From Lathyrus oleraceus (taxonomy: Eukaryota > Streptophyta > Magnoliopsida > Fabales > Fabaceae): 64,000 nucleotides of DNA. A program made the translations under genes and the position numbers. Location: NCBI RefSeq assembly GCF_024323335.1, contig NC_066581.1, positions 226,750,539 through 226,814,538 on the forward strand. The letters run 5' to 3'. Below the pieces are notes generated by a model that saw only the letters and a list, made by a program, of their open reading frames with translations, was not told where the DNA came from and did no database searches. Shown here piece by piece: positions 7,350-62,200 of this stretch (positions are counted from its first letter, which is position 1; each line of letters opens with the position of its first letter).

Positions 7350-8959
7350 TGTTGTACCCCTAAATTTGCCTCCCCATTTTTTCCATATCTCCATCCAACC
7401 ACTTGACTAGGGTTCAGTTGCATACATTAATAACTCATGCATAAGCACCATTCATTCCCTCAAGGGATTACCATGGATTCCAAATGCTTGGCATGTGGAG
7501 CTAGGGTTTGCTTGTGTATTAACTTGAAAGGTGTGACTTGGACTTGCACCAAGGCTCAAGGGCCTCCAAAACCCTAATCTCTTGATGATGGAGGTATGGG
7601 TTCAATAGAGAAATAGCCAGGCAATCCTCAAAGCTCTCTAACCCTAATGCTTAAAGATTTGGTCATGAAGCTTTGGGTTTGCTTGTGAAGCATCTTGATT
7701 AATTCAAAGATCCTGACATGCCTCAGGTAACCCCAACCAAGGAGCATTTGGTTTAAAGGTATCTTATAACTTGATTCTTCATCTAGATGGTCTCCAAACC
7801 CTAGTTCCACCTAATTCATCATCCATTGTGTGCTTAGTCATTGCCCATCATAACTCCTTGTATCTGGTTCATTCATGTTGAGGCCATCTAAGTCTATTTC
7901 ATGGCATCTCAATACCTAGTGTTGGGTTCATGGGTCTTTGGTCTTGGGTTTATCCTAGTCATTCATGTTCACCCAAAGTCATATGCTTAGTTCATTTCAA
8001 TCATGACCATTCAAGATTAAGTCACATTCATTCAAGACCACTTCCTAACCAATTTTAATCCATTATATTCAAGATTCAATTCCATACAAAATCCATTTCA
8101 TCCAAAATATCAATCACATTCATTTGTTTAATCATATAATTGTTCATTACACACAAAAAATGCAAATAATAAACTTTGACCAAATGTTGACTTTGGTTAA
8201 TAGTTGACTTTTTGGTCAACTTTGACCAAAGTCAACCCAAATTCTTTTTCACCCTAAAGCACTAAGTGTCCACCCTAGTTTTTATGTGAACTTTTCATGC
8301 CTCCATTGTCACTCGTAACTTCATTTGCAAGCAAGTCATGATAATATCCTTAAATCACCACCTTGATCTTCGTGTGGTTTCATGCCATCTTGTGGTCATA
8401 TGTCAAGCGTGAGCTAGCCCTGTTAACATGTTTCCATTGCATCCATAAATAAATTCAAAGAGATAAGGCCATCATGATCTATAGACAATCCAAGAGGTTA
8501 AATAACTCATACTAAGTATGCCAAATAAGGTTCATGCATCTAGTTGTTCAACATACTCACATGGCCACAATTCTATAGAATTTAGAGCATTGTATACCTT
8601 ATCCAAATAGGACTTAACTTGGAATCAACATAACAATAACATCAATAACATGAAAGCATGAGTAGCAGTGCACAATCACATTCATACCTGCTGTAATGCC
8701 AACCCAAAATCAGAAACAAACCATGTACCAAATAATCCATGAGCAGAACCTGCAATGAAATTAAAACATGAGCCATTACCAATCAAACTTGCAGCAAACA
8801 TGAGATCAAGTGTAGACCTACAATTCATACAGTAACCATTGCAACTCATAAGCCTTACCTGCTTCAAACTCAGTCCTGAACCATAACCAAACACACATGC
8901 AGAACCATGTCAGAGGTGCAATGAAACATGAATAAATACCTGCAATCTTGCAACAATAC
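7350..8959 (+). repeat. Solo LTR, 5' part (U3-like)
   Basis: AT-rich, no coding capacity. It contains stretches of ttcatt/catgc-rich words and several 'cctgc..aa' and 'catgaa' near-repeats toward 8680-8950. These continue at 31507-32700 on the other side of Ogre1, which supports these being one original sequence. Confidence 0.7.
8955..8959. repeat. Target-site duplication AATAC, left copy (Ogre1)
   Basis: AATAC immediately before TGTAGCACC; the second copy is at 31502-31506 after ..GCGACA. Confidence 0.9.
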
Positions 8960-11900
8960 TGTAGCACCTCAAATTTGCACCTATCATTGTACATACATTT
9001 TCATATTAGGTCATAGCATATCATGGTCCACTGCATAGCATTGCATTGTCCCAGTTGCCTCAAGTGCAAGCCAATCAAGAGAATTAGGTCAAACTGGTCA
9101 GGAGATCAGTCAGTCAAGCAAGCAAGCATAATTCTCAAGGAGCCAAGGCCTCAGGGTTGGTCCAACATGTTCACATGACTTGGGGATCCATTTGAAGTGT
9201 TTTGGTCAAGGATTGGATGTTCAGAAGTCATCAGTCAATGCACAATCAGTCAGAAACCCTAAAAGTCAACTGTTGGTCAACTGTCCATTTAATCAGTGAT
9301 TTGATGATGGGATTTGGTTTGAGAGAGCTTATTCATGTCCATATAGGCCTCATATATCATGTCAAACACCATCATGGAAGAATTTGAAGCCAGATCAGAA
9401 ATTTCCAAAAATGGAAACTGGACCTGTAACTGAAACTTACCAAAAATGGAAAGTCTTGATCCTCAAACTTACATCATGATACAAGCTTCAAATGAATTTT
9501 TGCCCAACATGAAAGTTGAAGATCTTGTTCTCCCATTTCCAAAAAGTCCAAGAACTCTCAATTCCCATGTATGGTTGGCAAGTTATGATCAAATCATTTT
9601 CAGAAATTCTTGAACTTCAAAAGGCCATATCTCCCAAACCATTTGGCCAATTTTGGTGGGGTTTTTTCCTACAAGTCACATTTGATCCCCTCTTTCCAAA
9701 AATGTAACTTTCATGTGCCAAAACTTCACCATGCAAAATGGCCTTTTTGAACTTGCCTTAATTAATTTCAAGTGAGTTGAATTTTGACTTTTCAAAATAA
9801 TCATTTTTAAACCATTTGGCCAATTGAAATAGTTCAGAAATGTGGTTTATGACTTGTTGCAAGCCCATTTTTATGCAGTACACATAGCCATCACCTAGTT
9901 GCTTGAAAATTGGAAAGAAAGTACACTTTTCACCCACTCTACTCCATATTTTCATGAACCATGATTAGCATTCCACAAGCAACATCAAAACAACAGATAT
10001 ATTCATGATTTTCTGTCACTTAGAAACCCTAGCAGCTGCCTCCAAACTCAAAAACCTCACTCATTTTCTCAAACTTCATTTTTTGCATTTTTTCAAAATC
10101 TGCCAAAAAGCTCCAAAGAACTCGACCTGGTCATTGTTATTTCATCATCCAAACAACATTTTGGACTCATTGCAACTTCATTTCCACAACTGTAAGAAGC
10201 TTATACCCGACTGTTCTTTCCAAGCATCATCCATGGCAAAGTTTGGTTAAAGCTATTTCAAGCGTTTTCAAGGCGAACCATCTTCATCATTCATCATCTG
10301 GAGGGTTATAGGTCATCTGTTTCGAGCTTGCATCATCAAACAACAACTGTTTCTCCACTTTCTTCAAAACTTGGTAAGAATTCGAACTCAACCTTTGATG
10401 AAATTACATGATGCATCTTGTAGATCTTTTCACTGTGAGTGTCATGAACTTTAAACCGATTGAAACCGTGCCAAGATGAGAGAGAACGAGGGTTTTGAAA
10501 TTTCATGTGCTTGGCAAGATTCAATCGATTCTTTATTTTATTGTTGTTTTGAGATGAATTACTTGTGGATTCATGTTAAGTTTTGTTAGATCTTCATAAA
10601 TATGTGCTTGAATGATGCTTCTGGGCTGTTTGGTTTTTTCTGGGAATTTCACGCGTGAAGATCATGAGGATCTTCATGCTGTTCATGAAACGCTGCACAT
10701 TACCTGCGGATTCACGTGCGGCCTTCATAGCTGGCTACGGATTTTCCTGCGGATTTCTGGGCTAGGGTTTTTTTTATGAATTTGTTACTGTTGCATTAAG
10801 CCTGGCCAATCAGCTTATTTCGTTTCCCTGGCCCAAAACGGCGCGTTTTGATTAGTGGCGTGGGTAATTTCAAAAATGCCACTGGCCGTGCCCCCATGTC
10901 CCATTAAATCATGTTGTTTTTTCCATTTTTATTTCATTTGATACATCATCTTACAAAAATCATATCTCATCCATTTTAATTCCAAATCTCATGGGAATTT
11001 TTGCATTGTGTTCATTTGGATCTCTACTTTTTTATCATGATTTTTGCTGATTTTTTGGATGAGTAAATTTTAATTGGTATTAGGGTTTGTGACATGTGCT
11101 CATATTTTGTACCTTTTGCCAAAACATTTGTGAAATGGTGATACTTTATCCAATGGCTCCCAAATTTTTTGTGCTTAAACTAGACACATTCATGGTGATT
11201 TTGGTGTAGAGTTTGTGAATTTATCATTGCTGGTTTGTGAGATATGATTTTTTGAATTAGGGTGTGACAATTTGTGTCACACCATTGATGTCCAACTTCA
11301 TGATTTTCATTACCATGCTTCTTGAACTCAAATTGGTTTGAACTTTTGCATGAATGTACTCTTGGATGTCTAGTTTACATGTGAATTTTCTTGGAATTAT
11401 TTGTGGCATTTCCTAATTGTTTGAGATTTTCTCCCCTGTTTAGTCATATGTTGACTTTTTATGACACATGTTCCCATTTCATTTGTGAAATTCTCATACT
11501 TTATTAGATGGACATGAAATTTTACATGAGATAACTAGACATCCTCATCTTTGCCATGGTTTTAGTCCCATTCATTTATCATACACCATCTCTGATTTAT
11601 GATTTTTCTAAGTTGATGCATGTTTGGTTGACTTCATTGAGCATGTTCAAAATTACTTTGACTTTCTGATTTTCATTGACTACCTTCCACTTGTCCAAAT
11701 GAGATGAAATTTGACATGCTTACCATGTTGTGGGTTGTGATTGACCATGATTTATTTGGTGATTTTTGGAAATGTTTAAGATTGCTTTTGAGTTAAGTCT
11801 TGTTGTTGACTTCTATGAGTTTCTGTTTGCAACACTTTGACCTAAATTGTTCATGAAATGATGATGATGATTGATATGAATGTGAACCCAATTGGTTTAG

Positions 11901-12279
11901 TTTCTTGATTGTTTGAACATGATTTTGGATGCTTGCCCTTTGCTGTTTTGACTTTTTCATTCCTTTTTGACCCTAGGCTTGTCCTAGTGGTCCTGTTACT
12001 CACTTCTGAGTTCATGTTTTCAGGTTAAGCTACAAATGCTTCAAAGAGATCATTACAATTTGATTGAGTTCATTTGATTATCATGAGCTAACCTCTTTGT
12101 TTTGTAGGTGGCTTGGCCCACATGCCTTAAGCCTTATGCCTTGCACATTCATTTGCTTCTGATTAACTGTTAATGTCTGTTTCCTTTTGCTTTGATTTGA
12201 GTTGCATACTAACATCTGCTTGACTATTTCAGGTGCTTTTAGTTGCTTAGTTCCTTGTGAACTTTTGCTTTGCTTTGCT

Positions 12280-12287
12280 TATATAAG
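12280..12287 (+). promoter_or_regulatory. Candidate TATA box of Ogre1 LTR
   Basis: TATATAAG, preceded by a TTTGC repeat and located about 1.6 kb before the LTR end, at the border between bland AT-rich U3 and the repeat-rich segment. The same sequence is at 29893-29900 in the 3' LTR. The homologous site in Ogre2 reads catatcac, without a good TATA. The transcription start is not shown by sequence. Confidence 0.45.
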
Positions 12288-12333
12288 CAATTTGCATTGA
12301 GGTATATTTCTAATCTTCATGTAGTCTGGAAGA

Positions 12334-12355
12334 CCTGGCCTGTTACTTGGCCAGG
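12334..12355 (+). other. Conserved LTR hairpin (CCTGGCC/GGCCAGG)
   Basis: A seven-base-pair stem with loop TGTTACTT. In Ogre2 (43326-43347 and its right-LTR counterpart) the sense sequence reads CCTGTCA..TGGCAGG: the innermost C-G pair has become A-U and one G-C has become U-G, keeping the stem. Confidence 0.55.
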
Positions 12356-12848
12356 CAACTGTCTGAAGCCCTCCTTAAGAGGCAATGTCTGTGGATGTTT
12401 AATTTTGTCCTTGCATGGAGTCAAAGACCTCCTAAGTGAAGAGGCAATTGGCAGAACCCAAGGGATATGCAATCTATCCCCTGCTATTCTGTGTGTCATC
12501 TGCTTTGCTCACACCACTGTGTTGATGCATTGTAGATACAAACCCAAGATCTTGTACAATCGTACAGTTGAGTCAGTATCAAATGTGTAGAAGGGTTCCC
12601 ACTTTCTGAACCCACACATTCTTGTCTTAAGCTCTCCCAGGCCAGGGATAAGAGCTGTGAAGTCTTATCTTCACTCACCTTTCATCTGCTTCACCTTAGC
12701 CCCTCAATGGCAAGGTTAAGAGCACATTCACCCAGTTCCAGAGGTTTGTTTGTTGAGGTTGATATGACCCCTCGACTAAAACCTAACCCTTGTTTGAGCC
12801 ACTTGCTTGTGTATAGTGTGTGCTATCTGTGCTTGTATGTTTGTTTGA

Positions 12849-12996
12849 CTTGCTTCCTGTGCAAGTTAGGGTTAGTTTAGACTTGCTTCCTGTGCAAGTT
12901 AGGTTTTGCTTGGCTTGCTTCCTGTGCAAGTTAAGTGTGTGTGTGGCTTGCTTCCTGTGCAAGTCATGATTAGGATAGGCTGGCTCCCTGTGCCAG
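12849..12996 (+). repeat. Five 33-bp tandem hairpin repeats with UUCCUGU loop
   Basis: Stems at 12849-12867, 12882-12900, 12915-12931, 12948-12964 and 12981-12996 each pair CTTGC with GCAAG around loop TTCCTGT. The last unit pairs CTGGC with GCCAG around TCCCTGT, a compensatory U-A to G-C change. Spacers are unrelated in sequence. The 3' LTR has the same array at about 30462-30609. Ogre2 LTRs show only one clear unit (sense CTTGC..GCGAG, near 42805). Confidence 0.7.
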
Positions 12997-13117
12997 TTAG
13001 CTAGAAACCTTAACTTAGGGATGATTTGCATGATAACATCTAGGCTCGAGTCATAGTCTCCCTAGTTGTGTCTCCCTCTGTTATCTGGTTAGGCTAGTCC
13101 TGTATCCCTGCGTAGGG

Positions 13118-13187
13118 GAACTACGTCGCCCTGATCCTCATACCAGATGAGGTACGTAGGCAGGAGATGAGCAGATCTCTCCGGGCG
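13118..13187 (+). other. Three-way-junction/pseudoknot module, copy 1 (Ogre1 5' LTR)
   Basis: P1 CGCCC (13127-13131) pairs GGGCG (13183-13187). Linker TGAT. P2 CCTCAT (13136-13141) pairs ATGAGG (13147-13152). Linker TACGTAGGCA (13153-13162). P3 GGAGA (13163-13167) pairs TCTCC (13178-13182). The 5' flank GAACTACG can pair its CTACG with CGTAG in the linker, making a pseudoknot. Confidence 0.65.
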
Positions 13188-13270
13188 CCTGTGTCTTTGT
13201 TTTGTCTTGTTGTGTGCTTGGAAGCTGATGTAAGTCCATCGAGTGGCAGTTAGGTTCCAGTGTGCGTGTG

Positions 13271-13400
13271 TTTGGTTCGGATGCTGATGTAAGTCCAGTG
13301 ATTGGCATTCAGGCTCCACGTTTGCCTCTTTGTGTGTGTTTTGGTTCGGATGCTGATGTAAGTCCAGTGATTGGCATTCAGGCTCCACGTTTACCTTTGC
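13271..13400 (+). repeat. Tandem repeat of about 68 bp in Ogre1 LTR
   Basis: The string ggttcggatgctgatgtaag, followed by a ccagtgattggcattcaggc segment, occurs twice in a row. A diverged third unit lies just upstream at about 13211-13262 (gaagctgatgtaagtccatc). Ogre2 LTRs have two to three diverged units (sense ctgacgtaagtccagcgatt). Confidence 0.75.
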
Positions 13401-13427
13401 CAGTGTTTGTTTGTGTGCGTGTCAGCC

Positions 13428-13500
13428 GAGCTACGAATGCTCTGATTCTTCTTCGTCTGAGAAGATACGTATGCATAGGATGCGATATCCTAGCGAGCAT
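13428..13500 (+). other. Three-way-junction/pseudoknot module, copy 2 (Ogre1 5' LTR)
   Basis: P1 ATGCTC (13437-13442) pairs GAGCAT (13495-13500). Linker TGAT. P2 TCTTC (13447-13451) pairs GAAGA (13461-13465). Linker TACGTATGCA (13466-13475). P3 TAGGAT (13476-13481) pairs ATCCTA (13487-13492). Flank GAGCTACGA: only TACG/CGTA of the pseudoknot is kept. Confidence 0.65.
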
Positions 13501-13518
13501 GTGTCGTTTCCCCAGTCC

Positions 13519-13588
13519 GAACTACTTCGACTCTGATGTCTATGCCTGATAGACTAAGTAGGCCCAGGATGCGATATCCTGCCGAGTC
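13519..13588 (+). other. Three-way-junction/pseudoknot module, copy 3 (Ogre1 5' LTR)
   Basis: P1 GACTC (13529-13533) pairs GAGTC (13584-13588). Linker TGAT. P2 GTCTAT (13538-13543) pairs ATAGAC (13549-13554). Linker TAAGTAGGCC (13555-13564). P3 CAGGAT (13565-13570) pairs ATCCTG (13576-13581). Flank CTACTT pairs AAGTAG of the linker: both halves of the pseudoknot differ from copy 1 in a matched way. Confidence 0.7.
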
Positions 13589-13890
13589 AGTTTCGGTCTT
13601 GTTTGTTTTCTTGTGTCTCTTTCAGCCAGTGTGTGTGAGTTTGAACAGCATTTTAGCAACCATTTTCCTTTCTATTGTGCGTGGATCCCGTCGAGTACGA
13701 CGGATGCGTAGGGGTGCTAATACCTTCCCTTCGCATAACCGACTCCCGAACCCATTCTCTTTGGTCGCGAGACCATGTCTTTTTCCAGGTTTACTCTGAG
13801 CGTTTCCTTTCCCTCTTTTGGGATAAATAACGCACGGTGGCGGCTCTGTTGTTCTTGTTTTCCCGCCGGTTTTTCGCGTGATGCGACAGC

Positions 13891-13908
13891 TGGCGACTCT
13901 GCTGGGGA
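13891..13908 (+). other. Ogre1 primer binding site (tRNA-Arg type)
   Basis: TGGCGACTCTGCTGGGGA begins 2 nt after the LTR end. It is the complement of a tRNA 3' end reading TCCCCAGCAGAGTCGCCA; Ogre elements are known to use tRNA-Arg. Ogre2 has the identical 18 nt at 59237-59254 on the other strand. Confidence 0.9.
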
Positions 13909-14715
13909 ATATAGAGAAGTTGACCTGTGCTGGTCCGTCTTCCCTAAGCGAGTCTCTCCTAGCGCTCTCTAGGTTAGGGCTTTGGTTGCTTTGTGCTGTT
14001 ATTATTTGCATTCATTTGTATATATTTGCATTTACTATTTGCATTTATTGTTTGCATTAATGTTTGCATTTATTCATCTGTTCATCTGGCTGGTTGTCTG
14101 TTTCTCTCTGTTGGGGTGGGAGTTACATGAGGTAAAAGGCCCAATACCCAGGCCATGAGTGAAATCTAGGATACTTAGGAATAGAGTGATTCATGGGAAG
14201 CGGGTGGTATTGCGCCACTTAGCGGAACATTGATATCACGAGCAGTTCAGACCCTGGTGGGATATTATCGTTACATACTTCGGGTGTGTATATGATGATA
14301 TTCTGCGAAAGGTTATTTATGCTGCGTTTCTCTCGACCTTACCCTGGCCTAGATGACACCCGTGAGTGGGGCGGGGATGATCATTATTACAGGTACAGTT
14401 GGTGACTTGTTGGTGACTTGTTGGTGACTTGTGATCCTGTTGGTGACTATTGGTTCAGAATTTTGGGGTCTCAGACGACTTTGGGTTTCAGATGAATTTG
14501 TGGTTCCGAGTTCAAGCCGAAGCTTTGATCCTGTGTTCCGAGAGACACAGCCAACCAGTCGAGTCTGCATCATTTGCATCATAGCATATTTATTTTTCAA
14601 AAGAAACGCAATAAAAAAAAAGATACAAAAAAAAAAAAAAGAAAAGAAAAAAAAAACTAATCCCTGCATGCATATCATTTCTCAGGTACATTCCAGAGCT
14701 TGTTCACTGATAGAG
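13909..14715 (+). other. Ogre1 5' leader: conserved block, TTGGTGAC repeats and A-rich tract
   Basis: No gene. Three parts are visible: (a) a block at about 14120-14350 (tggtattgcgccacttagcgg, atatcacgagcagttcag) closely matched in the Ogre2 leader (58800-59050); (b) at 14400-14450 five copies of ttggtgac spaced about 11 nt, matched by gtcacc-aa repeats in Ogre2 (58672-58770); (c) an A-rich tract at 14607-14657 just before ORF1, matched by a T-rich tract at 58464-58525. Conservation of all three in order suggests a leader function such as packaging or translation (inference). Confidence 0.7.
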
Positions 14716-25170: not shown

Positions 25171-25253
25171 CAACCTTGCCTTGACATATCTAAAAAGTCG
25201 TTATTGTGATACCGGTAAGTGTCATACTAGCACCCACGTGTGTTTCGTTGTTT

Positions 25254-26439
25254 GGTGTCGGTAAACACCATTGTTTCGGTGTCTGTAAACATCGAGTTTT
25301 CTCTCCAGTCATCAGTAAATGTCTGGTCATCATTTTTGGTGTCAGTAAACACCATTGTTTCGGTGTCTGTAAACATCGGGTATTCTCTCCAGTCATCAGT
25401 AAATGTCTGGTCATTATTGTTGGTGTCTGTAAACACCATTGTTTCGGTGTCTGTAAACATCGGGTCTTTTCTGCAGTCATCAGTAAATGTCTGGTCATCA
25501 TTGTTTCGGTGTCTGTAAACATCGGGTTTTCTCCCCAGTCATCGGTAAATGTCTGGTCATTTTTTGGTGTCGGTAAACATCATCTTTCGATGTCGGTAAA
25601 CATCGAGTCTTTTCTGCAGTCATCAGTAAATGTCTGATAATCCCCAGCTAGAGATCCCCAGTAGAGTCATCGGTAAATGTCCTATCTGTTTTCCAGTTGC
25701 AAATATTTGTTTTTTTTCCTTTAGTGAAGTGTTCCCAGTCATCGGTAAATGTCTGGTCGTTTTTGGATGTCGGTAAACATCATCTTTCGATGTCGGTAAA
25801 CATCGAGTCTCATCCCAGTCATCGGTAAATGTCTGGTCGTTTTTGGGTGTCGGTAAACATTATCTTTCGATGTCGGTAAACGTCGAGTCTCATCCCAGTC
25901 ATCGGTAAATGTCTGGTTATGCTTTGTTTCCTTGTTGATAAAATCAAGATCCCCAGAAGTCGTCGGTAAACGTCTTGTCTGATTACACCACAAAGATTTT
26001 GTTCCACCCCAAGTGGAGACGCCATCGGTAAATGGCCCCGTTTGCTTCGATATCGGTAAATATTGAATGCCCAGTTTTATCCGCCATCGGTAAATGGCCC
26101 CGTTTGCTTCGATATCGGTAAATATTGAATGCCCAGTTTTATCCGCCATCGGTAAATGGCCCCGTTTTCTTCGATATCGGTAAATATCGGATCCCCAGTT
26201 GCAGTAGCCATCGGTAAATGGTCGAGTTGAAGTTGATATCGGTAAATGTCAAATTTCTCCGAAGCCACCATCGGTAAATGGTCTTGCTTCCTTTTACATC
26301 AGAGTTGTTTCCCAGCAGCCATCGGTAAAGGGTTTTGCTGAAGTTGATATCGGTAAATATCAAGTTACCAGTTTCTAACCATCGGTAAATGGTTTCGCTT
26401 TTCTGAAGATGTCAATTGCAGGCGTCATCAGTAAATGAC
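25254..26439 (+). repeat. Ogre1 3' UTR minisatellite built of CGGTAA-loop hairpins
   Basis: Three tandem sub-blocks: about 87 bp units (25250-25620), about 82 bp units (25735-25915) and 62 bp units (26020-26170), then single diverged units. Nearly every unit holds NNNNT-C(G/A/T)GTAA-ANNNN with complementary arms: GGTGT/ACACC (25254-25269), GCCAT/ATGGC (26083-26098), CGATAT/ATATCG (26172-26189), AACCAT/ATGGTT (26377-26394), GTCAT/ATGAC (26424-26439). Tandem repeats in this hypervariable region are known in Ogre and can seed satellites. The stem covariation is my reading. Confidence 0.8.
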
Positions 26440-26560: not shown

Positions 26561-26574
26561 TGAATAGGGGCAGC
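26561..26574 (+). other. Ogre1 polypurine tract
   Basis: tgaataggggcagc directly before the 3' LTR TGTAGC. The same sequence precedes the Ogre2 3' LTR (46249-46262, minus strand). AATAGGGG is the likely RNase H-resistant primer. Confidence 0.7.
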
Positions 26575-29500
26575 TGTAGCACCTCAAATTTGCACCTATC
26601 ATTGTACATACATTTTCATATTAGGTCATAGCATATCATGGTCCACTGCATAGCATTGCATTGTCCCAGTTGCCTCAAGTGCAAGCCAATCAAGAGAATT
26701 AGGTCAAACTGGTCAGGAGATCAGTCAGTCAAGCAAGCAAGCATAATTCTCAAGGAGCCAAGGCCTCAGGGTTGGTCCAACATGTTCACATGACTTGGGG
26801 ATCCATTTGAAGTGTTTTGGTCAAGGATTGGATGTTCAGAAGTCATCAGTCAATGCACAATCAGTCAGAAACCCTAAAAGTCAACTGTTGGTCAACTGTC
26901 CATTTAATCAGTGATTTGATGATGGGATTTGGTTTGAGAGAGCTTATTCATGTCCATATAGGCCTCATATATCATGTCAAACACCATCATGGAAGAATTT
27001 GAAGCCAGATCAGAAATTTCCAAAAATGGAAACTGGACCTGTAACTGAAACTTACCAAAAATGGAAAGTCTTGATCCTCAAACTTACATCATGATACAAG
27101 CTTCAAATGAATTTTTGCCCAACATTAAAGTTGAAGATCTTGTTCTCCCATTTCCAAAAAGTCCAAGAACTCTCAATTCCCATGTATGGTTGGCAAGTTA
27201 TGATCAAATCATTTTCAGAAATTCTTGAACTTCAAAAGGCCATATCTCCCAAACCATTTGGCCAATTTTGGTGGGGTTTTTTCCTACAAGTCACATTTGA
27301 CCCCCTCTTTCCAAAAATGTAACTTTCATGTGCCAAAACTTCACCATGCAAAATGGCCTTTTTGAACTTGCCTTAATTAATTTCAAGTGAGTTGAATTTT
27401 GACTTTTCAAAATAATCATTTTTAAACCATTTGGCCAATTGAAATAGTTCAGAAATATGGTTTATGACTTGTTGCAAGCCCATTTTTATGCAGTACACAT
27501 AGCCATCACCTAGTTGCTTGAAAATTGGAAAGAAAGTACACTTTTCACCCACTCTACTCCATATTTTCATGAACCATGATTAGCATTCCACAAGCAACAT
27601 CAAAACAGCAGATATATTCATGATTTTCTGTCACTTAGAAACCCTAGCAGCTGCCTCCAAACTCAAAAACCTCACTCATTTTCTCAAACTTCATTTTTTA
27701 AATTTTTTTAAAATCTGCCAAAAAGCTCCAAAGAACTCGACCTGGTCATTGTTATTTCATCATCCAAACAACATTTTGGACTCATTGCAACTTCATTTCC
27801 ACAACTGTAAGAAGCTTATACCCGACTGTTCTTTCCAAGCATCATCCATGGCAAAGTTTGGTTAAAGCTATTTCAAGCATTTTCAAGGCGAACCATCTTC
27901 ATCATTCATCATCTGGAGGGTTATAGGTCATCTGTTTCGAGCTTGCATCATCAAACAACAACTGTTTCTCCACTTTCTTCAAAACTTGGTAAGAATTCGA
28001 ACTCAACCTTTGATGAAATTACATGATGCATCTTGTAGATCTTTTCACTGTGAGTGTCATGAACTTTAAACCGATTGAAACCGTGCCAAGATGAGAGAGA
28101 ACGAGGGTTTTGAAATTTCATGTGCTTGGCAAGATTCAATCGATTCTTTATTTTATTGTTGTTTTGAGATGAATTACTTGTGGATTCATGTTAAGTTTTG
28201 TTAGATCTTCATAAATATGTGCTTGAATGATGCTTCTGGGCTGTTTGGTTTTTTCTGGGAATTTCACGCGTGAAGATCATGAGGATCTTCATGCTGTTCA
28301 TGAAACGCTGCACATTACCTGCGGATTCACGTGCGGCCTTCATAGCTGGCTACGGATTTTCCTGCGGATTTCTGGGCTAGGGTTTTTTTTATGAATTTGT
28401 TACTGTTGCATTAAGCCTGGCCAATCAGCTTATTTCGTTTCCCTGGCCCAAAACGGCGCGTTTTGATTAGTGGCGTGGGTAATTTCAAAAATGCCACTGG
28501 CCGTGCCCCATGTCCCATTAAATCATGTTGTTTTTTCCATTTTTATTTCATTTGATACATCATCTTACAAAAATCATATCTCATCCATTTTAATTCCAAA
28601 TCTCATGGGAATTTTTGCATTGTGTTCATTTGGATCTCTACTTTTTTATCATGATTTTTGCTGATTTTTTGGATGAGTGAATTTTAATTGGTATTAGGGT
28701 TTGTGACATGTGCTCATATTTTGTACCTTTTGCCAAAACATTTGTGAAATGGTGATACTTTATCCAATGGCTCCCAAATTTTTTGTGCTTAAACTAGACA
28801 CATTCATGGTGATTTTGGTGTAGAGTTTGTGAATTTATCATTGCTGGTTTGTGAGATATGATTTTTTGAATTAGGGTGTGACAATTTGTGTCACACCATT
28901 GATGTCCAACTTCATGATTTTCATTACCATGCTTCTTGAACTCAAATTGGTTTGAACTTTTGCATGAATGTACTCTTGGATGTCTAGTTTACATGTGAAT
29001 TTTCTTGGAATTATTTGTGGCATTTCCTAATTGTTTGAGATTTTCTCCCCTGTTTAGTCATATGTTGACTTTTTATGACACATGTTCCCATTTCATTTGT
29101 GAAATTCTCATACTTTATTAGATGGACATGAAATTTACATGAGATAACTAGACATCCTCATCTTTGCCATGGTTTTAGTCCCATTCATTTATCATACACC
29201 ATCTCTGATTTATGATTTTTCTAAGTTGATGCATGTTTGGTTGACTTCATTGAGCATGTTCAAAATTACTTTGACTTTCTGATTTTCATTGACTACCTTC
29301 CACTTGTCCAAATGAGATGAAATTTGACATGCTTACCATGTTGTGGGTTGTGATTGACCATGATTTATTTGGTGATTTTTGGAAATGTTTAAGATTGCTT
29401 TTGAGTTAAGTCTTGCTGTTGACTTCTATGAGTTTCTGTTTGCAACACTTTGACCTAAATTGTTCATGAAATGATGATGATGATTGATATGAATGTGAAC

Positions 29501-30730
29501 CCAATTGGTTTAGTTTCTTGATTGTTTGAAAATGATTTTGGATGCTTGCCCTTTGCTGTTTTGACTTTTTCATTCCTTTTTGACCCTAGGCTTGTCCTAG
29601 TGGTCCTGTTACTCACTTCTGAGTTCATGTTTTCAGGTTAAGCTACAAATGCTTCAAAGAGATCATTACAATTTGATTGAGTTCATTTGATTATCATGAG
29701 CTAACCTCTTTGTTTTGTAGGTGGCTTGGCCCACATGCCTTAAGCCTTATGCCTTGCACATTCATTTGCTTCTGATTAACTGTTAATGTCTGTTTCCTTT
29801 TGCTTTGATTTGAGTTGCATACTAACATCTGCTTGACTATTTCAGGTGCTTTTAGTTGCTTAGTTCCTTGTGAACTTTTGCTTTGCTTTGCTTATATAAG
29901 CAATTTGCATTGAGGTATATTTCTAATCTTCATGTAGTCTGGAAGACCTGGCCTGTTACTTGGCCAGGCAACTGTCTGAAGCCCTCCTTAAGAGGCAATG
30001 TCTGTGGATGTTTAATTTTGTCCTTGCATGGAGTCAAAGACCTCCTAAGTGAAGAGGCAATTGGCAGAACCCAAGGGATATGCAATCTATCCCCTGCTAT
30101 TCTGTGTGTCATCTGCTTTGCTCACACCACTGTGTTGATGCATTGTAGATACAAACCCAAGATCTTGTACAATCGTACAGTTGAGTCAGTATCAAATGTG
30201 TAGAAGGGTTCCCACTTTCTGAACCCACACATTCTTGTCTTAAGCTCTCCCAGGCCAGGGATAAGAGCTGTGAAGTCTTATCTTCACTCACCTTTCATCT
30301 GCTTCACCTTAGCCCCTCAATGGCAAGGTTAAGAGCACATTCACCCAGTTCCAGAGGTTTGTTTGTTGAGGTTGATATGACCCCTCGACTAAAACCTAAC
30401 CCTTGTTTGAGCCACTTGCTTGTGTATAGTGTGTGCTATCTGTGCTTGTATGTTTGTTTGACTTGCTTCCTGTGCAAGTTAGGGTTAGTTTAGACTTGCT
30501 TCCTGTGCAAGTTAGGTTTTGCTTGGCTTGCTTCCTGTGCAAGTTAAGTGTGTGTGTGGCTTGCTTCCTGTGCAAGTCATGATTAGGATAGGCTGGCTCC
30601 CTGTGCCAGTTAGCTAGAAACCTTAACTTAGGGATGATTTGCATGATAACATCTAGGCTCGAGTCGTAGTCTCCCTAGTTGTGTCTCCCTCTGTTATCTG
30701 GTTAGGCTAGTCCTATATCCCTGCGTAGGG

Positions 30731-31201
30731 GAACTACGTCGCCCTGATCCTCATACCAGATGAGGTACGTAGGCAGGAGATGAGCAGATCTCTCCGGGCG
30801 CCTGTGTCTTTGTTTTGTCTTGTTGTGTGCTTGGAAGCTGATGTAAGTCCATCGAGTGGCAGTTAGGTTCCAGTGTGCGTGTGTTTGGTTCGGATGCTGA
30901 TGTAAGTCCAGTGATTGGCATTCAGGCTCCACGTTTGCCTCTTTGTGTGTGTTTTGGTTCGGATGCTGATGTAAGTCCAGTGATTGGCATTCAGGCTCCA
31001 CGTTTACCTTTGCCAGTGTTTGTTTGTGTGCGTGTCAGCCGAGCTACGAATGCTCTGATTCTTCTTCGTCCGAGAAGATACGTATGCATAGGATGCGATA
31101 TCCTAGCGAGCATGTGTCGTTTCCCCAGTCCGAACTACTTCGACTCTGATGTCTATGCCTGATAGACTAAGTAGGCCCAGGATGCGATATCCTGCCGAGT
31201 C
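30731..31201 (+). other. Three junction/pseudoknot modules in Ogre1 3' LTR
   Basis: Copies at 30731-30800, 31041-31113 and 31132-31201 repeat those of the 5' LTR. The only change noticed is T to C in the P2 loop of copy 2 (cgtctga to cgtccga), which does not touch a stem. Confidence 0.65.
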
Positions 31202-31450
31202 AGTTTCGGTCTTGTTTGTTTTCTTGTGTCTCTTTCAGCCAGTGTGTGTGAGTTTGAACAACGTTTTAGCAACCATTTTCCTTTCTATTGTGCGTGGATC
31301 CCGTCGAGTACGACGGATGCGTAGGGGTGCTAATACCTTCCCTTCGCATAACCGACTCCCGAACCCATTCTCTTTGGTCGCGAGACCATGTTCTTTTCCA
31401 GGTTTACTCTGAGCGTTTCCTTTCCCTCTTTTGGGATAAATAACGCACGG

Positions 31451-31464
31451 TGGCGACTCTGTTG
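31451..31464 (+). other. PBS-like sequence inside U5 of Ogre1 3' LTR
   Basis: TGGCGACTCTGTTG matches the first 14 nt of the PBS except one base. The 5' LTR copy (13838-13851) has one more change (GCGGCT). Ogre2 LTRs carry TGGCGGCTCTGTG and the solo LTR GTCGACTCTGTTG (near 37017). Confidence 0.6.
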
Positions 31465-31501
31465 TTCTTGTTTTCCCGCCGGTTTTTCGCGTGATGCGAC
31501 A

Positions 31502-35320: not shown

Positions 35321-35394
35321 GAATTACGAAGCTCTGATTTCCTTATTGCACTATAAGGGTACGTAGGCAGGAGAACCCAGTTTCTTCGCGAGCT
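35321..35394 (+). other. Three-way-junction/pseudoknot module, solo LTR copy 1
   Basis: P1 AGCTC (35330-35334) with GAGCT (35390-35394). P2 CCTTAT (35341-35346) with ATAAGG (35353-35358). Linker TACGTAGGCA (35360-35369). P3 is weak (GGAGAA..TTTCTT with bulges). Flank GAATTACGA pairs the linker with one U-G. Confidence 0.6.
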
Positions 35395-35852: not shown

Positions 35853-35927
35853 GAACTACGATTGCTCTGACTTTCTCATTTCACAATGAGAATACGTAGG
35901 CACGAGGATACGAATCCTTGGAGAGCA
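35853..35927 (+). other. Three-way-junction/pseudoknot module, solo LTR copy 2
   Basis: P1 TGCTC (35863-35867) with GAGCA (35923-35927). P2 TTCTCAT (35873-35879) with ATGAGAA (35886-35892). Linker TACGTAGGCA (35893-35902). P3 CGAGGAT (35903-35909) with ATCCTTG (35914-35920, one G-U). Flank GAACTACGA. Confidence 0.7.
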
Positions 35928-36722: not shown

Positions 36723-36795
36723 GAACTACGAAGCTCTGAATTCCTCATTGCACTATGAGGATACGTAGGCATGAGGGACCTAATCCTCACCGAGC
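36723..36795 (+). other. Three-way-junction/pseudoknot module, solo LTR copy 3
   Basis: P1 GCTC (36733-36736) with GAGC (36792-36795). P2 CCTCAT (36743-36748) with ATGAGG (36755-36760). Linker TACGTAGGCA (36762-36771). P3 TGAGG (36772-36776) with CCTCA (36785-36789). Flank GAACTACGA. Confidence 0.7.
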
Positions 36796-37075
36796 ACTCT
36801 ATCTATTTCCTTTCCTTTTCCCATTCTTTTGCGAGTAATCTTTAGTTATCACACCTATTCGAGCGATAACAATCAAAACGGTTCCCATGGAGTACCATGG
36901 ATGTTTGGGGTGCTAATACCTTCCCCTTGCACAACCGACTTCCTTACCCAGTATATCTCTTTACCCCGGGTTTTATCGATGTTTTCCCTTTCCTCTGGGG
37001 ATAAATAAAGTTCGATGTCGACTCTGTTGTATATTCGAGCATGCAATACGTTCGGGTATATTTTCGCTAGCTTCA

Positions 37076-41993: not shown

Positions 41994-44900
41994 TGTCGCA
42001 TTACGCGAAAAACCGGCGGGAAAAGACACAGAGCCGCCACCGTGCGTTATTTATCCCAAAAGAGGGAAAGGAAACGCTCGAAGTAAACCTGGAAAGGAAT
42101 GGTCTCGCAACCAGAGATTGATAGGATCGGGAGTCGGTTATGCGAAGGGAAGGTATTAGCACCCCTACGCATCCGTCGTACTCGACGGGATCCACGCTCA
42201 GAAAGAATAGAAGAAAGCTTGCTAAAGATACTGCTCAAAGAATGCACAAAACTGGACTGAAACGCAGATGAAAGACGGAAGAAGGTGACTCGGCCGGATG
42301 TCACATCCTGGGCCTACGTAGTTTGTCAAACACAAACATCAGAGTCGACGTAGTTCGGGGAAATGGGAAACGTGCTCGCTAGGATATCGCATCCTATGCA
42401 TACGTATCTTCTCTAACTAGAGAAAGAATCAAAGCACTCGTAGCTCGGCTAACGCACGCCAAACAAGACGCTAAACAGAGACGCTAAGACGTCAAAGCAA
42501 ACTGGAAATGGAATGCCAATCGCTGGTCTTACACCCAACTCCACACAAAACAAACACACGGGAGACCGACTGCCAATCGCTGGACTTACGTCAGACTCCG
42601 AACAAGCAAACACCCACAGGAAACCGACTGCTACGTACCTCATCTGGTATGAGGATCAGGGCGACATAGTTCCCCTTAAAAGGGAAAAAACTTCTATCCT
42701 AATCAGAGACTAGGGAGATAACAAGCTACTAGGGAGACTACGACTCGAGCCTAGAAGTTGTCATGCATACGATCCCTATGTTGAGGTCTCTAATCAGCAC
42801 CTCACTCGCACAGGAAGCAAGCTAGCCTAAACATCAATCAAGTAAGCAAACACAAGCACAAGAGAGCAAGCACACACACTATATGCAAACAAGTGGCTCA
42901 TACAAGGCTGGGCTTTAGTCAAGGGGTCATATCAATCTCGACAAACAAGCCAACTGTTATGGGTGTTTTGAGCTCTTAACCCTAACATTGAGAGTTAGGG
43001 TGAAGCAGATGAAATGGGAAATGAGGATCAGACCTCATAGCTCTTATCCCTGGCCTTGGAGAGCTTCAATCAATGAAAGGAAGGGAGTCCAGAATGAGGA
43101 ACTCTACTCCACATGACTGACTCTAAATACAATGATCTTGGGTGTTTATTCAAAATGCATCAGCACGTAGTGCGAGCAAGATGAATGACACAACTGAATA
43201 GCAGGGGATGGATTGCACATCCCTCCTATCTGCCAATGCCTCTTCACTTAGGAGGTCTTTGAAGTACATGGCACAAAGATAAACAAGCACAACCATTGCC
43301 TCTTAAGGAGGGCTTCAGACAGGTGCCTGCCAAAATAACATGACAGGTCTTCCAGATTACATGGAGTTAGAGGTCATTACCTAGGTGATATGCCAACCAC
43401 AAGCAAAGCAACCCAAACAATGAGTTAAAGCGGCTAAAGTACCTGTGTAAACAACCAAACTATCAGTATAGTGTTCAAACAAACTATCAATCAGACAAAC
43501 AACAGTGGTTCCCAATATACACAACAAGCAAGCTTTATGTGCAAGCATTCAAATTGTTTCATCATCTCAAATGGCCTACAAACAGCAAGGGTTAGTGGAC
43601 AAAAGCATTTTGCATCTCAATTTATGATATCAACATCAACCATCAAGGCTAGAAGCTTGAACCTGAAATGCACAACTCAAAAGATGAGTACAAACCACTA
43701 GCGCCAAGGCTAGGGTCAAAGGTAAGGCAAAAAGTCAAAACAGCAACTAAAACTCAACATGAATCACATTTAACCAAGTAAGAACAAATCCTAAAAAGGA
43801 CAAATTCAAAAGCATTAAGCAAGGTCATCATTCAACCAAGAGAAGGCAAGGCAAGCAAAAGGTGTATACAATTGACCATCAAGAATCAAAATTCCATATT
43901 AAAACAGAAATGACTCAAACAATTCTAGAAATTTTCATGAGCATACAACATGTCCATCATAATCATCATGTCAAAAATCATAAACAGAGGAGCTCAATTG
44001 GCTAGGCAATGAAAATGGAGAAGATCAATATCAAATTGTGTGACACATATTGTCACACCATATTAGCATGTGCCTAAAACAGAAATGACAAAGGCTAAAA
44101 ATGCACAACCAAGCCTCAAAAATCACACAACATGTTGAGAATCAGCACACAAAATTTCATGGCAATTGGATCATTATTGAGCATTTCACAATAGTTTGAA
44201 TGAGGCATGGTCCAAATGTATACATGTTCAATCAATCCAACACAATTTATTTTCCAGAAATGATAAAATCCTAAAATCAACACCATAAAATTCTAGACAT
44301 TCCAAGGATCATGCTGCAAAAAACCTGGAATTATTTGGATCATGATACTATTTTTGGTGATTTTTTGAAGATCATGGAAAAAATGAAATAAACATTGAAA
44401 TATCATGAAAATAATAAAAAGAAATGAACAAAATGGAAATGTCTGAAGCCGGATTCGAAGTGTGTACGCGCTTATGCCAAAACTACGTCGTTTTGGCCAG
44501 GAATTTGAATGGAGAAGCGCGCGCTAGCGAAACGACGTCGTTTCGCCCTAGGGTTTACAGGCGGCGGCTGGTACTGTAGCTCGCGGAGGAAACCACCGTC
44601 TTCCTCATGAAGACGGTGGTGGTGAGTAGTGAAATTCACGAATTTTTTTTGCAGAATCACGAAAATTTTATATCATTTTAAAGCTTGTGACATGTAGGTT
44701 CCTAATCTACCATTATTTTACTCTAATTCATCATGATCACAGCAAATCGAAGAGAAATCAACATGAACATTCAAACTTTAATCTCATGTATCTTCCTCAA
44801 TATTGCGCCATTTTTCATGTTCTTTATATCAGTGGAATCAGCAAGCAAAACTCTGCAACTCTATGTGCATAAAAAAGAGAATTAAGAGGTGCGAAATTCT

Positions 44901-59256: not shown

Positions 59257-62200
59257 TGTCGCATTACGCGAAAAACCGGCGGGAAAAGACACAGAGCCGC
59301 CACCGTGCGTTATTTATCCCAAAAGAGGGAAAGGAAACGCTCGAAGTAAACCTGGAAAGGAATGGTCTCGCGACCAGAGATTGATAGGATCGGGAGTCGG
59401 TTATGCAAAGGGAAGGTATTAGCACCCCTACGCATCCGTCGTACTCGACGGGATCCACGCTCAGAAAGAATAGAAGAAAGGTTGCTAAAGATACTGCTCA
59501 AAGAATGCACAAAACTGAACTGAAACACAGATGAAAGACGGAAGAAGGTGACTCGGCAGGATGTCGCATCCTGGGCCTACATAGTTTGTCAGACACAAAC
59601 ATCAGAGTCGATGTAGTTCGGGGAAATGGGAAACGTGCTCGCTAGGATATCACATCCTATGCATACGTATCTTCTCTAACCAGAGAAAGAATCAGAGCAC
59701 TCGTAGCTCGGCTAACGCACGCCAAACAAGACGCTAAGACGTCAAAGCAAACTGGAAATGGAATGCCAATCGCTGGTCTTACATCCAACTCCATACAAAA
59801 CAAACACACGGGAGACCGACTGCCAATCGCTGGACTTACGTCAGACTCCGAACAAGCAAACACCCATAGGAAACCGACTGCCAATCGCTGGACTTACGTC
59901 AGACTCCACACACACACAAGGGTTGAAAAAGAAAAAGGGCGCCCGGAGAGATCAGCTCATCTCCTACCTACGTACCTCATCTGGTATGAGGATCAGGGCG
60001 ACGTAGTTCCCCTTAACAGGGAAAAAACTTCTATCCTAACCAGAGACTAGGGAGATAACAAGCTACTAGGGAGACTACGACTCGAGCCTAGAAGTTGTCA
60101 TGCATACGATCCCTATGTTGAGGTCTCTAATCAACACCTAACTCGCACAGGAAGCAAGCTAGCCTAAACATCAATTAAGTAAGCAAACACAAGCACAAGA
60201 GAGCAAGCACACACACTATATGCAAACAAGTGGCTCATACAAGGCTGGGCTTTAGTCAAGGGGTCATATCAACCTCGACAAACAAGCCAACTGTTATGGG
60301 TATTTTGAGCTCTTAACCCTAACATTGAGAGTTAGGGTGAAGCAGATGAAATGGGAAATGAGGATCAGACCTCATAGCTCTTATCCCTGGCCTGAGAGAG
60401 CTTCAATCAATGAAAGGGTGGGAGTCCAGAATGAGGAACTCTACTCCACATGACTGACTCTAAATACAATGATCTTGGGTGTTTATTCAAAATGCATCAG
60501 CACGTAGTGCGAGCAAGATGAATGACACAACTGAATAGCAGGGGATGGATTGCACATCCCTCATATCTGCCAATGCCTCTTCACTTAGGAGGTCTTTGAA
60601 GTACATGGCACAAAGATAAACAAGCACAAACATTGCCTCTTAAGGAGGGCTTCAGACAGGTGCCTGCCAAAATAACATGACAGGTCTTCCAGACTACATG
60701 GAGTTAGAGGTCATTACCTAGGTGATATGCCAACCACAAGCAAAGCAACTCAAACAATGAGTTAAAGTGGCTAAAGTACCTGTGTAAACAACCAAACAAT
60801 CAGTATAGTGTTCAGACAAACTATCAATCAGACAAACAACAGTGGTTCCCAATATACACAACAAGCAAGCTTTATGTGCAAGCATTCAAATTGTTTCATC
60901 ATCTCAAATGGCCTACAAACAGCAAGGGTTAGTGGAAAAAAGCATTTTGCATCTCAATTTATGATATCAACATCAACCATCAAGGCTAGAAGCTTGAACC
61001 TGAAATGCACAACTCAAAAGATGAGTACAAACCACTAGCACCAAAGCTAGGGTCAAAGGTAAGGCAAAAAGTCAAAACAGCAACTAAAACTCAACATGAA
61101 TCACATTTAACCAAGTAAGAACAAATCCTAAAAAGGACCAAATCAAAAGCATTAAGCAAGGTCATCATTCAACCAAGAGAAGGCAAGGCAAGCAAAAGGT
61201 GCATACAATTGACCATCAAGAATCAAAATTCCATATTAAAACAGAAATGACTCAAACAATTCTGGAAATTTTCATGAGCATACAACATGTCCAACATAAT
61301 CATCATGTCAAAAATCATAAACAGAGGAGCTGAATTGGCTAGGCAATGAAAATGGAGAAGATCAATATCAAATTGTGTGACACACATTGTCACACCATAT
61401 TAGCATGTGCCTAAAACAAAAATGACAAAGGCTAAAAATGCACAACCAAGCCTCAAAAATCACACAACATGTTGAGAATCAGCACACACAATTTCATGGC
61501 AATTGGATCATTATTGAGCATTTCACAATAGTTTGAATCAGGCATGGTTCAAATGTATACATTTTCAATCAATCCAACACAATTTATTTTCCAGAAATGA
61601 TAAAATCCTAAAATCAACACCATAAAATTCTAGACATTCCAAGGATCATGCTGCAAAAAACCTGGAATTATTTGGATCATTATACTATTTTTGGTGATTT
61701 TTTGAAAATTATGGAAAAAATGAAATAAACATTGAAATATCATGAAAATAATAAAAAGAAATGAACAAAATGGAAATGTCTGAAGCCGGATTCGAAGTGT
61801 GTACGCGCTTATGCCAAAACTACGTAGTTTTGGCCAGAAATTTGAATGGAGAAGGGCGCGCTAGCGAAACGACGTCGTTTCGCCCTAGGGTTTACAGGCG
61901 GCGGCTGGTACTGTAGCTCGCGGAGGAAACCACCGTCTTCCTCATGAAGACGGTGGTGGTGAACAGTGACATTCACGATTTTTTTTGCAGAATCACGAAA
62001 ATTTTATATCATTTTAAAGCTTGTGACATGTAGGTTCCGAATCTACCATTAGTTTACTCTAATTCATCATGATCACAGCAAATCGAAGAGAAATCAGCAT
62101 GAACATTCAAACTTTAATCTCACGTATCTTCCTCAATATTGCGCCATTTTTCATGTTCTTTATATCAGTGGAATCAGCAAGCAAAACTCTACAACTCTAT

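What the first reader, a model, noticed from the sequence alone, without database searches (positions are those of the whole stretch)
13118..13588. Three covarying three-way-junction/pseudoknot RNA modules in the Ogre1 LTR
Three 70-73 nt modules share one plan: GAA-CTACG-A, P1 5' arm, TGAT, hairpin P2, TA-CGTAG-GCA, hairpin P3, P1 3' arm. Linkers stay nearly constant while stems change completely yet remain paired: P1 CGCCC/GGGCG, ATGCTC/GAGCAT, GACTC/GAGTC; P2 CCTCAT/ATGAGG, TCTTC/GAAGA, GTCTAT/ATAGAC; P3 GGAGA/TCTCC, TAGGAT/ATCCTA, CAGGAT/ATCCTG. The 5' flank can also pair with the second linker (CTACG/CGTAG), and in copy 3 both sides change together (CTACTT/AAGTAG). Constant junction plus changing helices is the signature of a selected RNA fold such as a ribozyme, ligand-binding or protein-binding RNA. 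I know of no described family with this layout. Function is unknown.
Basis: partly seen in the sequence, partly recalled or inferred. Interest (0 to 1): 0.92.

Follow-up and report, generated by a model that had tools for sequence, protein, structure and literature searches.

The report
Conserved pseudoknotted RNA in plant retrotransposons
A roughly 70-letter stretch repeated in the ends of a giant plant jumping gene folds, as RNA, into one conserved knotted shape that tens of thousands of copies in this genome seem to keep, and its job is not yet known.

Summary
The three modules (13118-13187, 13428-13500, 13519-13588) share one fold: a three-way junction (P1, P2, P3) in which the 5' flank CUACG pairs with the P2-P3 linker CGUAG, an H-type pseudoknot around two hairpins. 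The window holds 15 copies (one broken) in three kinds of LTR. The 12-mer GATACGTAGGCA occurs 76,252 times in the genome against 782 for the reversed word, and the first 30 places are all modules. Two contigs filed as bacterial also carry it: a Tat-like LTR and, once, the stretch just behind a plant hAT transposase ORF. In a home-made, tree-aware covariation test the seven strongest of 1653 column pairs are pairs of this structure, and each helix has pairs that pass if only the 22 proposed pairs are corrected for. G-U exceeds A-C 114 to 35 (not in P1), which points to the element's sense RNA. Rfam 15 has no match. I read it as a cis-acting RNA element of Tat/Ogre transcripts, most likely a docking site for a host factor (export or stability). 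Rivals: exonuclease roadblock, packaging signal, translation element, ribozyme. The fold is well supported; the mechanism is inference.

The parts
13118..13187 (+). Module 1: GAA, PK 5' arm 13121-13125, P1 13127-13131/13183-13187, TGAT 13132-13135, P2 13136-13141/13147-13152, TA, PK 3' arm 13155-13159, GCA 13160-13162, P3 13163-13168/13175-13180, CC
   Evidence: sequence; CM R1 83.1 bits (in the model's training set)
13428..13500 (+). Module 2 (GAG start, linker TACGTATGCA, PK 4 of 5 pairs)
   Evidence: sequence; CM 79.3 bits over 13428-13499 (training set)
13519..13588 (+). Module 3 (PK CTACT/AGTAG, linker TAAGTAGGCC)
   Evidence: sequence; CM 79.8 bits (training set)
8959..13888 (+). 5' LTR of the Ogre-like element that holds the three modules
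   Evidence: self-BLAST, 99.57% to the 3' LTR; PBS-like stretch follows
26574..31501 (+). 3' LTR; carries the same modules at 30731-30800, 31041-31112, 31132-31201
12280..12286 (+). Only TATAWA match in this LTR; would place the modules about 0.8-1.3 kb downstream of a start (weak inference; the second Ogre's TATA-like sites lie elsewhere and the third LTR has none)
35321..35394 (+). Module in a third, different Tat-like LTR
   Evidence: CM 64.4 bits (training set)
35853..35927 (+). Module in the same third LTR
   Evidence: CM 68.5 bits (training set)
36723..36796 (+). Module in the same third LTR
   Evidence: CM 67.0 bits (training set)
59940..60009 (-). Module 1 homologue in second Ogre-like element
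   Evidence: CM 79.4 bits (training set)
59636..59709 (-). Module 2 homologue in second Ogre-like element
   Evidence: CM 71.6 bits (training set)
59550..59619 (-). Module 3 homologue; PK pair is A-T (CTACA/TGTAG)
   Evidence: CM 80.8 bits (training set)
42373..42446 (-). Module 2 homologue, other LTR of the second element
   Evidence: CM 66.9 bits (not in the training set, but close to a member)
42287..42356 (-). Module 3 homologue, other LTR; PK pair is G-C
   Evidence: CM 78.3 bits (training set)
42611..42672 (-). Module 1 homologue, broken (P3 and P1 3' arm lost)
   Evidence: CM 42.2 bits

Best explanation
A cis-acting RNA element of Tat/Ogre-lineage LTR retrotransposons. SHOWN by computation: on the sense RNA a 70-75 nt unit folds as P1 closing a junction with hairpins P2 and P3, with the 5' flank CUACG paired to the P2-P3 linker (pseudoknot), constant single-stranded bases GAA, UGAU, UA, GCA and NC, usually in several units upstream of the LTR's 3' tail block. 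INFERRED: the fold is read in the transcript (in the leader, in the 3' UTR, or both, depending on where transcription starts and stops), and the constant joint bases together with the knot make a surface for a host factor that carries the unspliced genomic RNA out of the nucleus or shields it from decay; several units give avidity. This is how the RNA transport elements of mouse IAP and musD and the ENEs of plant transposons are thought to serve their elements. I put about 0.95 on a selected RNA fold, 0.85 on the pseudoknot and 0.35-0.4 on this mechanism.
For: Covariation in all four helices and swap control; G-U 114 against A-C 35 over 97 rows, 37 against 9 over 18 cluster representatives, so sense RNA rather than a DNA element; out-of-sample hits at E 1.5e-8 to 4.6e-8 in a random stretch of this genome (L057), in a contaminant contig (L031) and behind a hAT ORF (L035); 76,252 exact 12-mers against 782, with the first 30 places confirmed; 28 of those 30 lie in Tat-type LTR ends. 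The carrier has an RT, two RNase H-type domains, integrase and an upstream ORF with DUF7745. Precedents: PMC12786077 (passages) names RTE and MTE, MTE with pseudoknot and kissing loops, and says that export of LTR-element RNA in plants has not been studied directly; PMC12501189 (start of abstract in a listing; one Discussion passage) reports that an ENE helps Evade RNA stability and mobility. The hAT case, if real, argues for a host rather than a Gag partner.
Against: No RNA or protein data. 0 of 16 pea stretches behind hAT ORFs about 30% identical hold the module, so the hAT link rests on one contig, itself chimeric. In P1 alone G-U and A-C are equal (10 and 10). Transcript ends are unknown: TATA positions differ between the families. 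No candidate partner. Nothing here separates export from stability, translation or packaging.
Confidence: 0.4

Rival explanations
1. Exonuclease roadblock (xrRNA-like): the 5' strand is trapped by the knot at the junction, so a 5'-3' exonuclease stops there and the RNA behind it survives; tandem units act as back-ups.
For: Same general plan as flavivirus xrRNAs as described in PMC5760640 (passages): a three-way junction whose nucleotides pair with the RNA's 5' end. Several units per LTR.
Against: No Rfam xrRNA hit. The passages describe two pairs there, plus a loop-to-downstream pseudoknot and a base triple; here it is five pairs and the P3 loop is not conserved. xrRNA motifs can block scanning ribosomes (PMC10520033, abstract passage), awkward in a leader.
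Confidence: 0.2
2. Packaging, dimerisation or strand-transfer signal recognised by Gag or RT.
For: Found in Tat LTR ends at 28 of 30 sampled places; several units suit multivalent Gag binding.
Against: A hAT transposon has no Gag or RT, and one carries a perfect module 52 nt behind its ORF; but that is a single case, and 0 of 16 pea hAT stretches have it.
Confidence: 0.15
3. Cap-independent or shunt-type translation element for a long leader.
For: If the 12280 TATA is real, the leader within the LTR is about 1.6 kb and the modules sit inside it.
Against: TATA positions are inconsistent; a place behind the hAT ORF would then need a 3' enhancer role.
Confidence: 0.1
4. Self-cleaving ribozyme, with the HDV-like order pseudoknot stem, closing stem, hairpin, pseudoknot stem, hairpin, closing stem, and a conserved C in the last joint.
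For: Same helix order as I recall for HDV; NC joint in 91 of 97 rows.
Against: No ribozyme family among the 4 Rfam matches at E<=10. As recalled, HDV has no four-base and two-base linkers around its P3, and its P3 is short with a conserved loop; here loops vary. Cutting each LTR transcript several times would harm the element.
Confidence: 0.07
5. Not an RNA fold: conserved DNA motifs (promoter or integration sites) with chance palindromes.
For: Core words are strongly conserved; TEs carry many regulatory motifs.
Against: Arms change while pairing is kept, and G-U is about three times as frequent as A-C overall, which a DNA site or DNA hairpin does not predict.
Confidence: 0.03

Closest known systems
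ENE / dENE triple-helix elements of plant transposon RNAs (Evade ENE, PMC12501189; work of Tycowski and others, cited there)
   Same: Conserved structured RNA carried by plant transposable elements, thought to stabilise their RNA
   Different: ENEs are stems with U-rich internal loops that clamp the poly(A) tail (recalled); this module has no such loop and is a pseudoknotted three-way junction
RNA transport elements RTE (IAP) and MTE (musD) of mouse LTR elements (PMC12786077, passages)
   Same: cis RNA structure in an LTR element; MTE also holds a pseudoknot
   Different: Animal, NXF1 pathway; no sequence or layout match was tested beyond Rfam
Flavivirus xrRNA (PMC5760640, passages)
   Different: Two pairs there, an extra loop pseudoknot and a base triple; viral 3' UTR; no Rfam match here
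HDV-like ribozymes
   Same: Helix order and crossing of the first two stems; C in the last joint
   Different: Extra linkers, P2 with free loop, no Rfam match; catalysis untested (HDV details recalled)

Membership tests
Any Rfam 15 family | Covariance-model match at gathering score | tested here: not met
   Window: 0 matches; 12300-14000 at E<=10: 4 chance-level matches, none overlapping a module; L031, L035, L057, L060: only snoR71, away from the modules
xrRNA (flavivirus class 1) | 5' nucleotides pair into a three-way junction | tested here: met
   By covariation only: PK pair 8-43 is GC 73, TA 15, AT 6, GT 2, AC 1 of 97 rows; rank 5 of 1653 column pairs, E 0.14 over all pairs
xrRNA (flavivirus class 1) | Match to the Rfam library, which I take to hold xrRNA models (recalled) | tested here: not met
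xrRNA (flavivirus class 1) | Stops Xrn1 | not testable with these tools
   needs enzyme assay
HDV-like ribozyme | Nested double pseudoknot order of helices | tested here: inconclusive
   Order of stems fits, but TGAT and TA linkers interrupt it; HDV details recalled
HDV-like ribozyme | Self-cleavage | not testable with these tools
   needs in vitro transcription
ENE | Two U-rich stretches facing each other in an internal loop of a stem (recalled) | tested here: not met
   Looked for by eye in the cluster representatives printed (19, one of them a false hit); a U-rich stretch follows the module in L035 but is outside it and was not tested
Retroviral-type packaging signal | Bound by Gag and needed for packaging | not testable with these tools
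   no data
Tat/Ogre LTR retrotransposon (the carrier) | Ty3-type RT, second RNase H, ORF1 before gag-pol | tested here: met
   RVT_1, RT_RNaseH, RVT_3, rve, and DUF7745 in the first ORF; that these mark Tat/Ogre is recalled

The most novel reading that the evidence does not exclude
A so far undescribed RNA class, present in about 10^5 copies in one plant genome and shared by class I (Tat LTR) and class II (hAT) transposons of several plants, whose pseudoknotted junction captures one host RNA-handling factor (or stalls one nuclease). It would be a common cis-acting passport of plant transposon RNA.
Probability: 0.3. Interest if true: 0.92.

Novelty: new variant of a known kind. Interest (0 to 1): 0.74.

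Why it matters
Tat/Ogre elements make up a large part of legume genomes (recalled), yet how plant LTR-element RNA is exported, protected or packaged is little known: PMC12786077 says export has not been studied directly (passage). A compact, strongly conserved RNA fold with tens of thousands of natural variants gives a direct handle: it can be probed, used as bait for host proteins, and serve as a search model for other plants.

Tried and rejected
Prokaryote scan with the exact core: 3 hits. L033 was dropped as chance: the model finds nothing in it and it looks coding by eye. L031 and L032/L035 look like plant DNA in bacterial assemblies. Viral contigs: exact core 0; relaxed core 18 contigs, none with a P1 partner by eye; 10 of the 18 were put to the model, best E 0.85, away from the core word: used as a negative control. 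hAT protein against viral contigs: 2 pattern matches, none a relative. Module behind pea hATs: 0 of 16 stretches, taken from 67 listed matches; some of the 16 are of one family (L092/L096, L094/L103, L101/L104 look alike), and only some 500-700 nt behind the ORF were seen. Literature by sequence words (listing of 40 of 1881): the one listed paper with TACGTAGGCA has it in an actin primer. RNAfold of 8 single modules: z -1.2 to -2.9; the optimum is the proposed nested fold in 2 of 8 (13519, 35853), uses the pseudoknot stem in place of P1 in 3 of 8 (13118, L035, L031) and has other pairings in 3 of 8 (13428, 36723, L057). So single-sequence energy alone would not have shown the fold.

Controls that were not in favour: the number of pairs with changes on both sides was not unusual (68 of 500 shuffles as high), the number of pair types was not (106 of 500); G-U equals A-C in P1 (10 and 10).

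Planned and not done: a pseudoknot test on copies with TATGTAGGCA across the genome (did not complete). R-scape itself was not available; one search is my own imitation (96 rows, 150 null alignments, parsimony substitutions re-dealt on a FastTree tree).

Rows dropped before counts:: 190 hits -> 99 distinct -> 98 of at least 60 nt -> 97 without the false hit L062:1699; one search also without the broken copy at 42611 (96). One search used its own regular expression (108 distinct, 17 clusters) and left out L032-L034 and L036-L053. L066/L067 and L070-L072 overlap, so the 30 loci are 27 separate stretches; they are the first 30 places on C1, not a random draw.

Full report
WHERE IT IS. The window lies in an unnamed 3.8 Gb genome whose contigs C1-C7 are 464-653 Mb long. 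Seven large chromosomes, that size and Ogre elements suggest pea (inference, recalled). An Ogre-like element spans 8959-31501 with LTRs 8959-13888 and 26574-31501, 99.57% identical, a PBS-like stretch after the 5' LTR, an ORF with DUF7745 first, then RT, RNase H-type and integrase domains. A second Ogre-like element lies on the minus strand (LTRs 41994-46248 and 59257-63576), and a third, different Tat-like LTR end lies near 35-37 kb; its tail resembles that of the first.

THE OBSERVATION. The plan is GAA, CTACG, 1-3 bases, P1, TGAT, P2, TA, CGTAG, GCA, P3, NC, P1'. The same plan recurs three times in the 3' LTR, three times in each LTR of the second element (one copy broken) and three times in the third LTR: 15 copies in the window. 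On 11 distinct modules 95.5% of cells pair, against 36.5-45.0% when partners are slid by one to three columns.

OUT OF SAMPLE. A covariance model from those 11 (10 of the window, one of L060) was run over the window, 7 regularly chosen 10-kb stretches of the genome and other loci. Two of the 7 stretches hold modules: one in L057 and three in L060 (one of these three is in the model). L057, L031 and L035, not in the model, score E 1.5e-8, 2.1e-8 and 4.6e-8; a further diverged copy in L020 scores 52.9 bits. Ten phage-like contigs that hold the bare core words gave nothing better than E 0.85. The word GATACGTAGGCA stands 38,225 + 38,027 times in the genome and its reversed control 401 + 381 times. 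The first 30 places were fetched; in 30 of 30 the model hits the word, weakest 29.7 bits in L082. In 28 of 30 (not L082, L090) the LTR tail block GGTGGCGACTCT (up to 2 mismatches) follows within 1.6 kb, the last module with the scanned linker words 240-376 nt before it. One to four modules are seen per LTR end in these 3-kb stretches, which may cut a set. Four modules in 70 kb would mean roughly 2 x 10^5 in the genome, a very rough figure.

IS IT A SELECTED RNA FOLD. (a) On 53 distinct rows, 93.8% of cells pair against 29.8-48.0% slid (this alignment was fitted to the model, which favours it, and the count of pairs with double changes was not unusual, 68 of 500 shuffles). (b) Without any model: in 17 mutually dissimilar modules found by core words only, arms at fixed places pair 5/5 in P2 for 88%, against 11% when arms are swapped between modules (0 of 5000), and P1 (partner sought downstream) 53% against 21% (1 of 5000). 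(c) My imitation of R-scape: of 1653 column pairs the seven strongest are all pairs of the proposed structure. Three of 22 reach E<=0.05 corrected for all pairs. If only the 22 proposed pairs are corrected for (my arithmetic, E x 22/1653), ten pass: P2_5, P3_1, P3_3, P2_1, PK5, P3_6, P1_2, P1_1, P1_4, P2_3, that is, some in every helix. Twelve of 22 do not pass; several of these hardly vary. The structure was in part drawn from the same sequences. (d) G-U 114 against A-C 35 over 97 rows points to the sense RNA; by helix it is PK 7 and 1, P1 10 and 10, P2 35 and 18, P3 62 and 6.

THE PSEUDOKNOT. Four of its five pairs hardly vary together, which says nothing for or against. The fifth changes together: GC 73, TA 15, AT 6, GT 2, AC 1 of 97 rows, E 0.14 for all pairs or 0.002 among the 22. 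Caveat: G8 and C43 are both in CpG, so AT could come from two decays; but double changes of this kind (6) exceed single ones (3), and the TA type (copy 3 of the window, probably one event) is a double transversion. Rows are related, so these are not independent counts. In the copy-2 lineage C4 faces T47 (mismatch) and A3 has become G at the same time (GAA2 with PK1b is the strongest non-structure coupling, E 0.62); a shifted pairing G3-C49, C4-G48 would explain it (inference).

BEYOND THIS GENOME. L031, a 35% GC contig in a Solirubrobacter assembly, carries a module followed by Tat-like tail words, so is probably plant contamination. L032/L035, a roe-deer gut MAG contig, is a join of bacterial genes and a plant hAT transposase ORF of 656 aa (Dimer_Tnp_hAT 1.9e-21); 52 nt behind its stop stands a module with perfect core, P1 GGCCTT/AAGGCC and long P2 and P3. 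No Tat tail is visible, but only some 130 nt follow before the bacterial part. Sixteen pea stretches behind hAT ORFs about 30% identical (16 of 67 listed) have none, so this is one case and could be an inserted LTR piece.

MECHANISM. The constant parts are the joints and the knot, while stems and loops change: the mark of a surface or pocket. Both ends of an LTR element's RNA come from the LTR, so the modules may lie in the leader, the 3' UTR or both; a lone TATA at 12280 would put them 0.8-1.3 kb into the leader, but the second Ogre's TATA-like words lie elsewhere and the third LTR has none, so I do not lean on it. I favour docking of a host RNA-handling factor, because animal LTR elements and plant TEs are known to use such RNAs (PMC12786077, passages; PMC12501189, start of abstract and a Discussion passage), because Ogre is named there as intron-containing, so that its unspliced genomic RNA needs a way out (my inference), and because a hAT, if truly a carrier, shares only the host with Tat. 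A nuclease roadblock is the best rival for its likeness to flavivirus xrRNA (PMC5760640, passages). None of this is tested.

NOVELTY. No Rfam 15 family matches. Ten full-text searches of the open library listed no title or abstract start that describes such a fold in plant LTRs; I looked into five papers by passages only. Subscription papers are mostly not held; one Ogre splicing paper that I tried was not, and I did not look up the original Ogre papers. I recall having seen the core words in other plant LTRs but no account of the structure. It is a new RNA family of a known kind, cis-acting RNA of mobile elements.

Noticed in passing
window 13220-13258, 13279-13317, 13348-13386 (3' LTR copies from 30833 on; second Ogre minus strand near 59902, 59844, 59787, 42594): A second repeated hairpin of 39 nt, GGA..CTGA-TGTAAGT-CCA..TGG-CA-TCAG..TCC, with CTGA/TTAG, CTGA/TCAG, CTGA/TCGG and TGGA/TCCA; its loop holds GTAAGT, like a 5' splice donor. 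Five distinct rows: 98.2% paired and covariation score reached by 8 of 500 shuffles, but pairs with double changes by 56 of 500; small sample.
   Followed up: partly
window 12848-12996 (3' LTR 30461-30609): Five small hairpins, CTTGC-TTCCTGT-GCAAG four times and CTGGC-TCCCTGT-GCCAG once: one compensated pair change, near-constant loop. The 3' third of this LTR looks like a string of RNA structures.
   Followed up: partly
L032/L035 (JAFUBK010000065.1): A deposited bacterial MAG contig joins bacterial genes (mreB-, spoIID- and ssb-like, named by eye) to a plant hAT transposon (Pfam hit); a chimeric assembly.
   Followed up: partly
L031 (NZ_QPKJ02000028.1): A 4.2 kb 35% GC scaffold in a Solirubrobacter assembly looks like plant Tat LTR DNA.
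   Followed up: partly
L060:5020-5126 minus: Plant snoRNA snoR71 match, 48.8 bits, in a 10-kb stretch of C7.
   Followed up: no
window 46479-47385 and 25245-26400: Diverged tandem repeats beside an LTR of the second element and just before the 3' LTR of the first.
   Followed up: no
window 42287-42356 and 59550-59619 minus: The two LTRs of one element differ at the pseudoknot pair by a matched double change (G-C and A-T), although LTRs start identical; both changes are at CpG.
   Followed up: no
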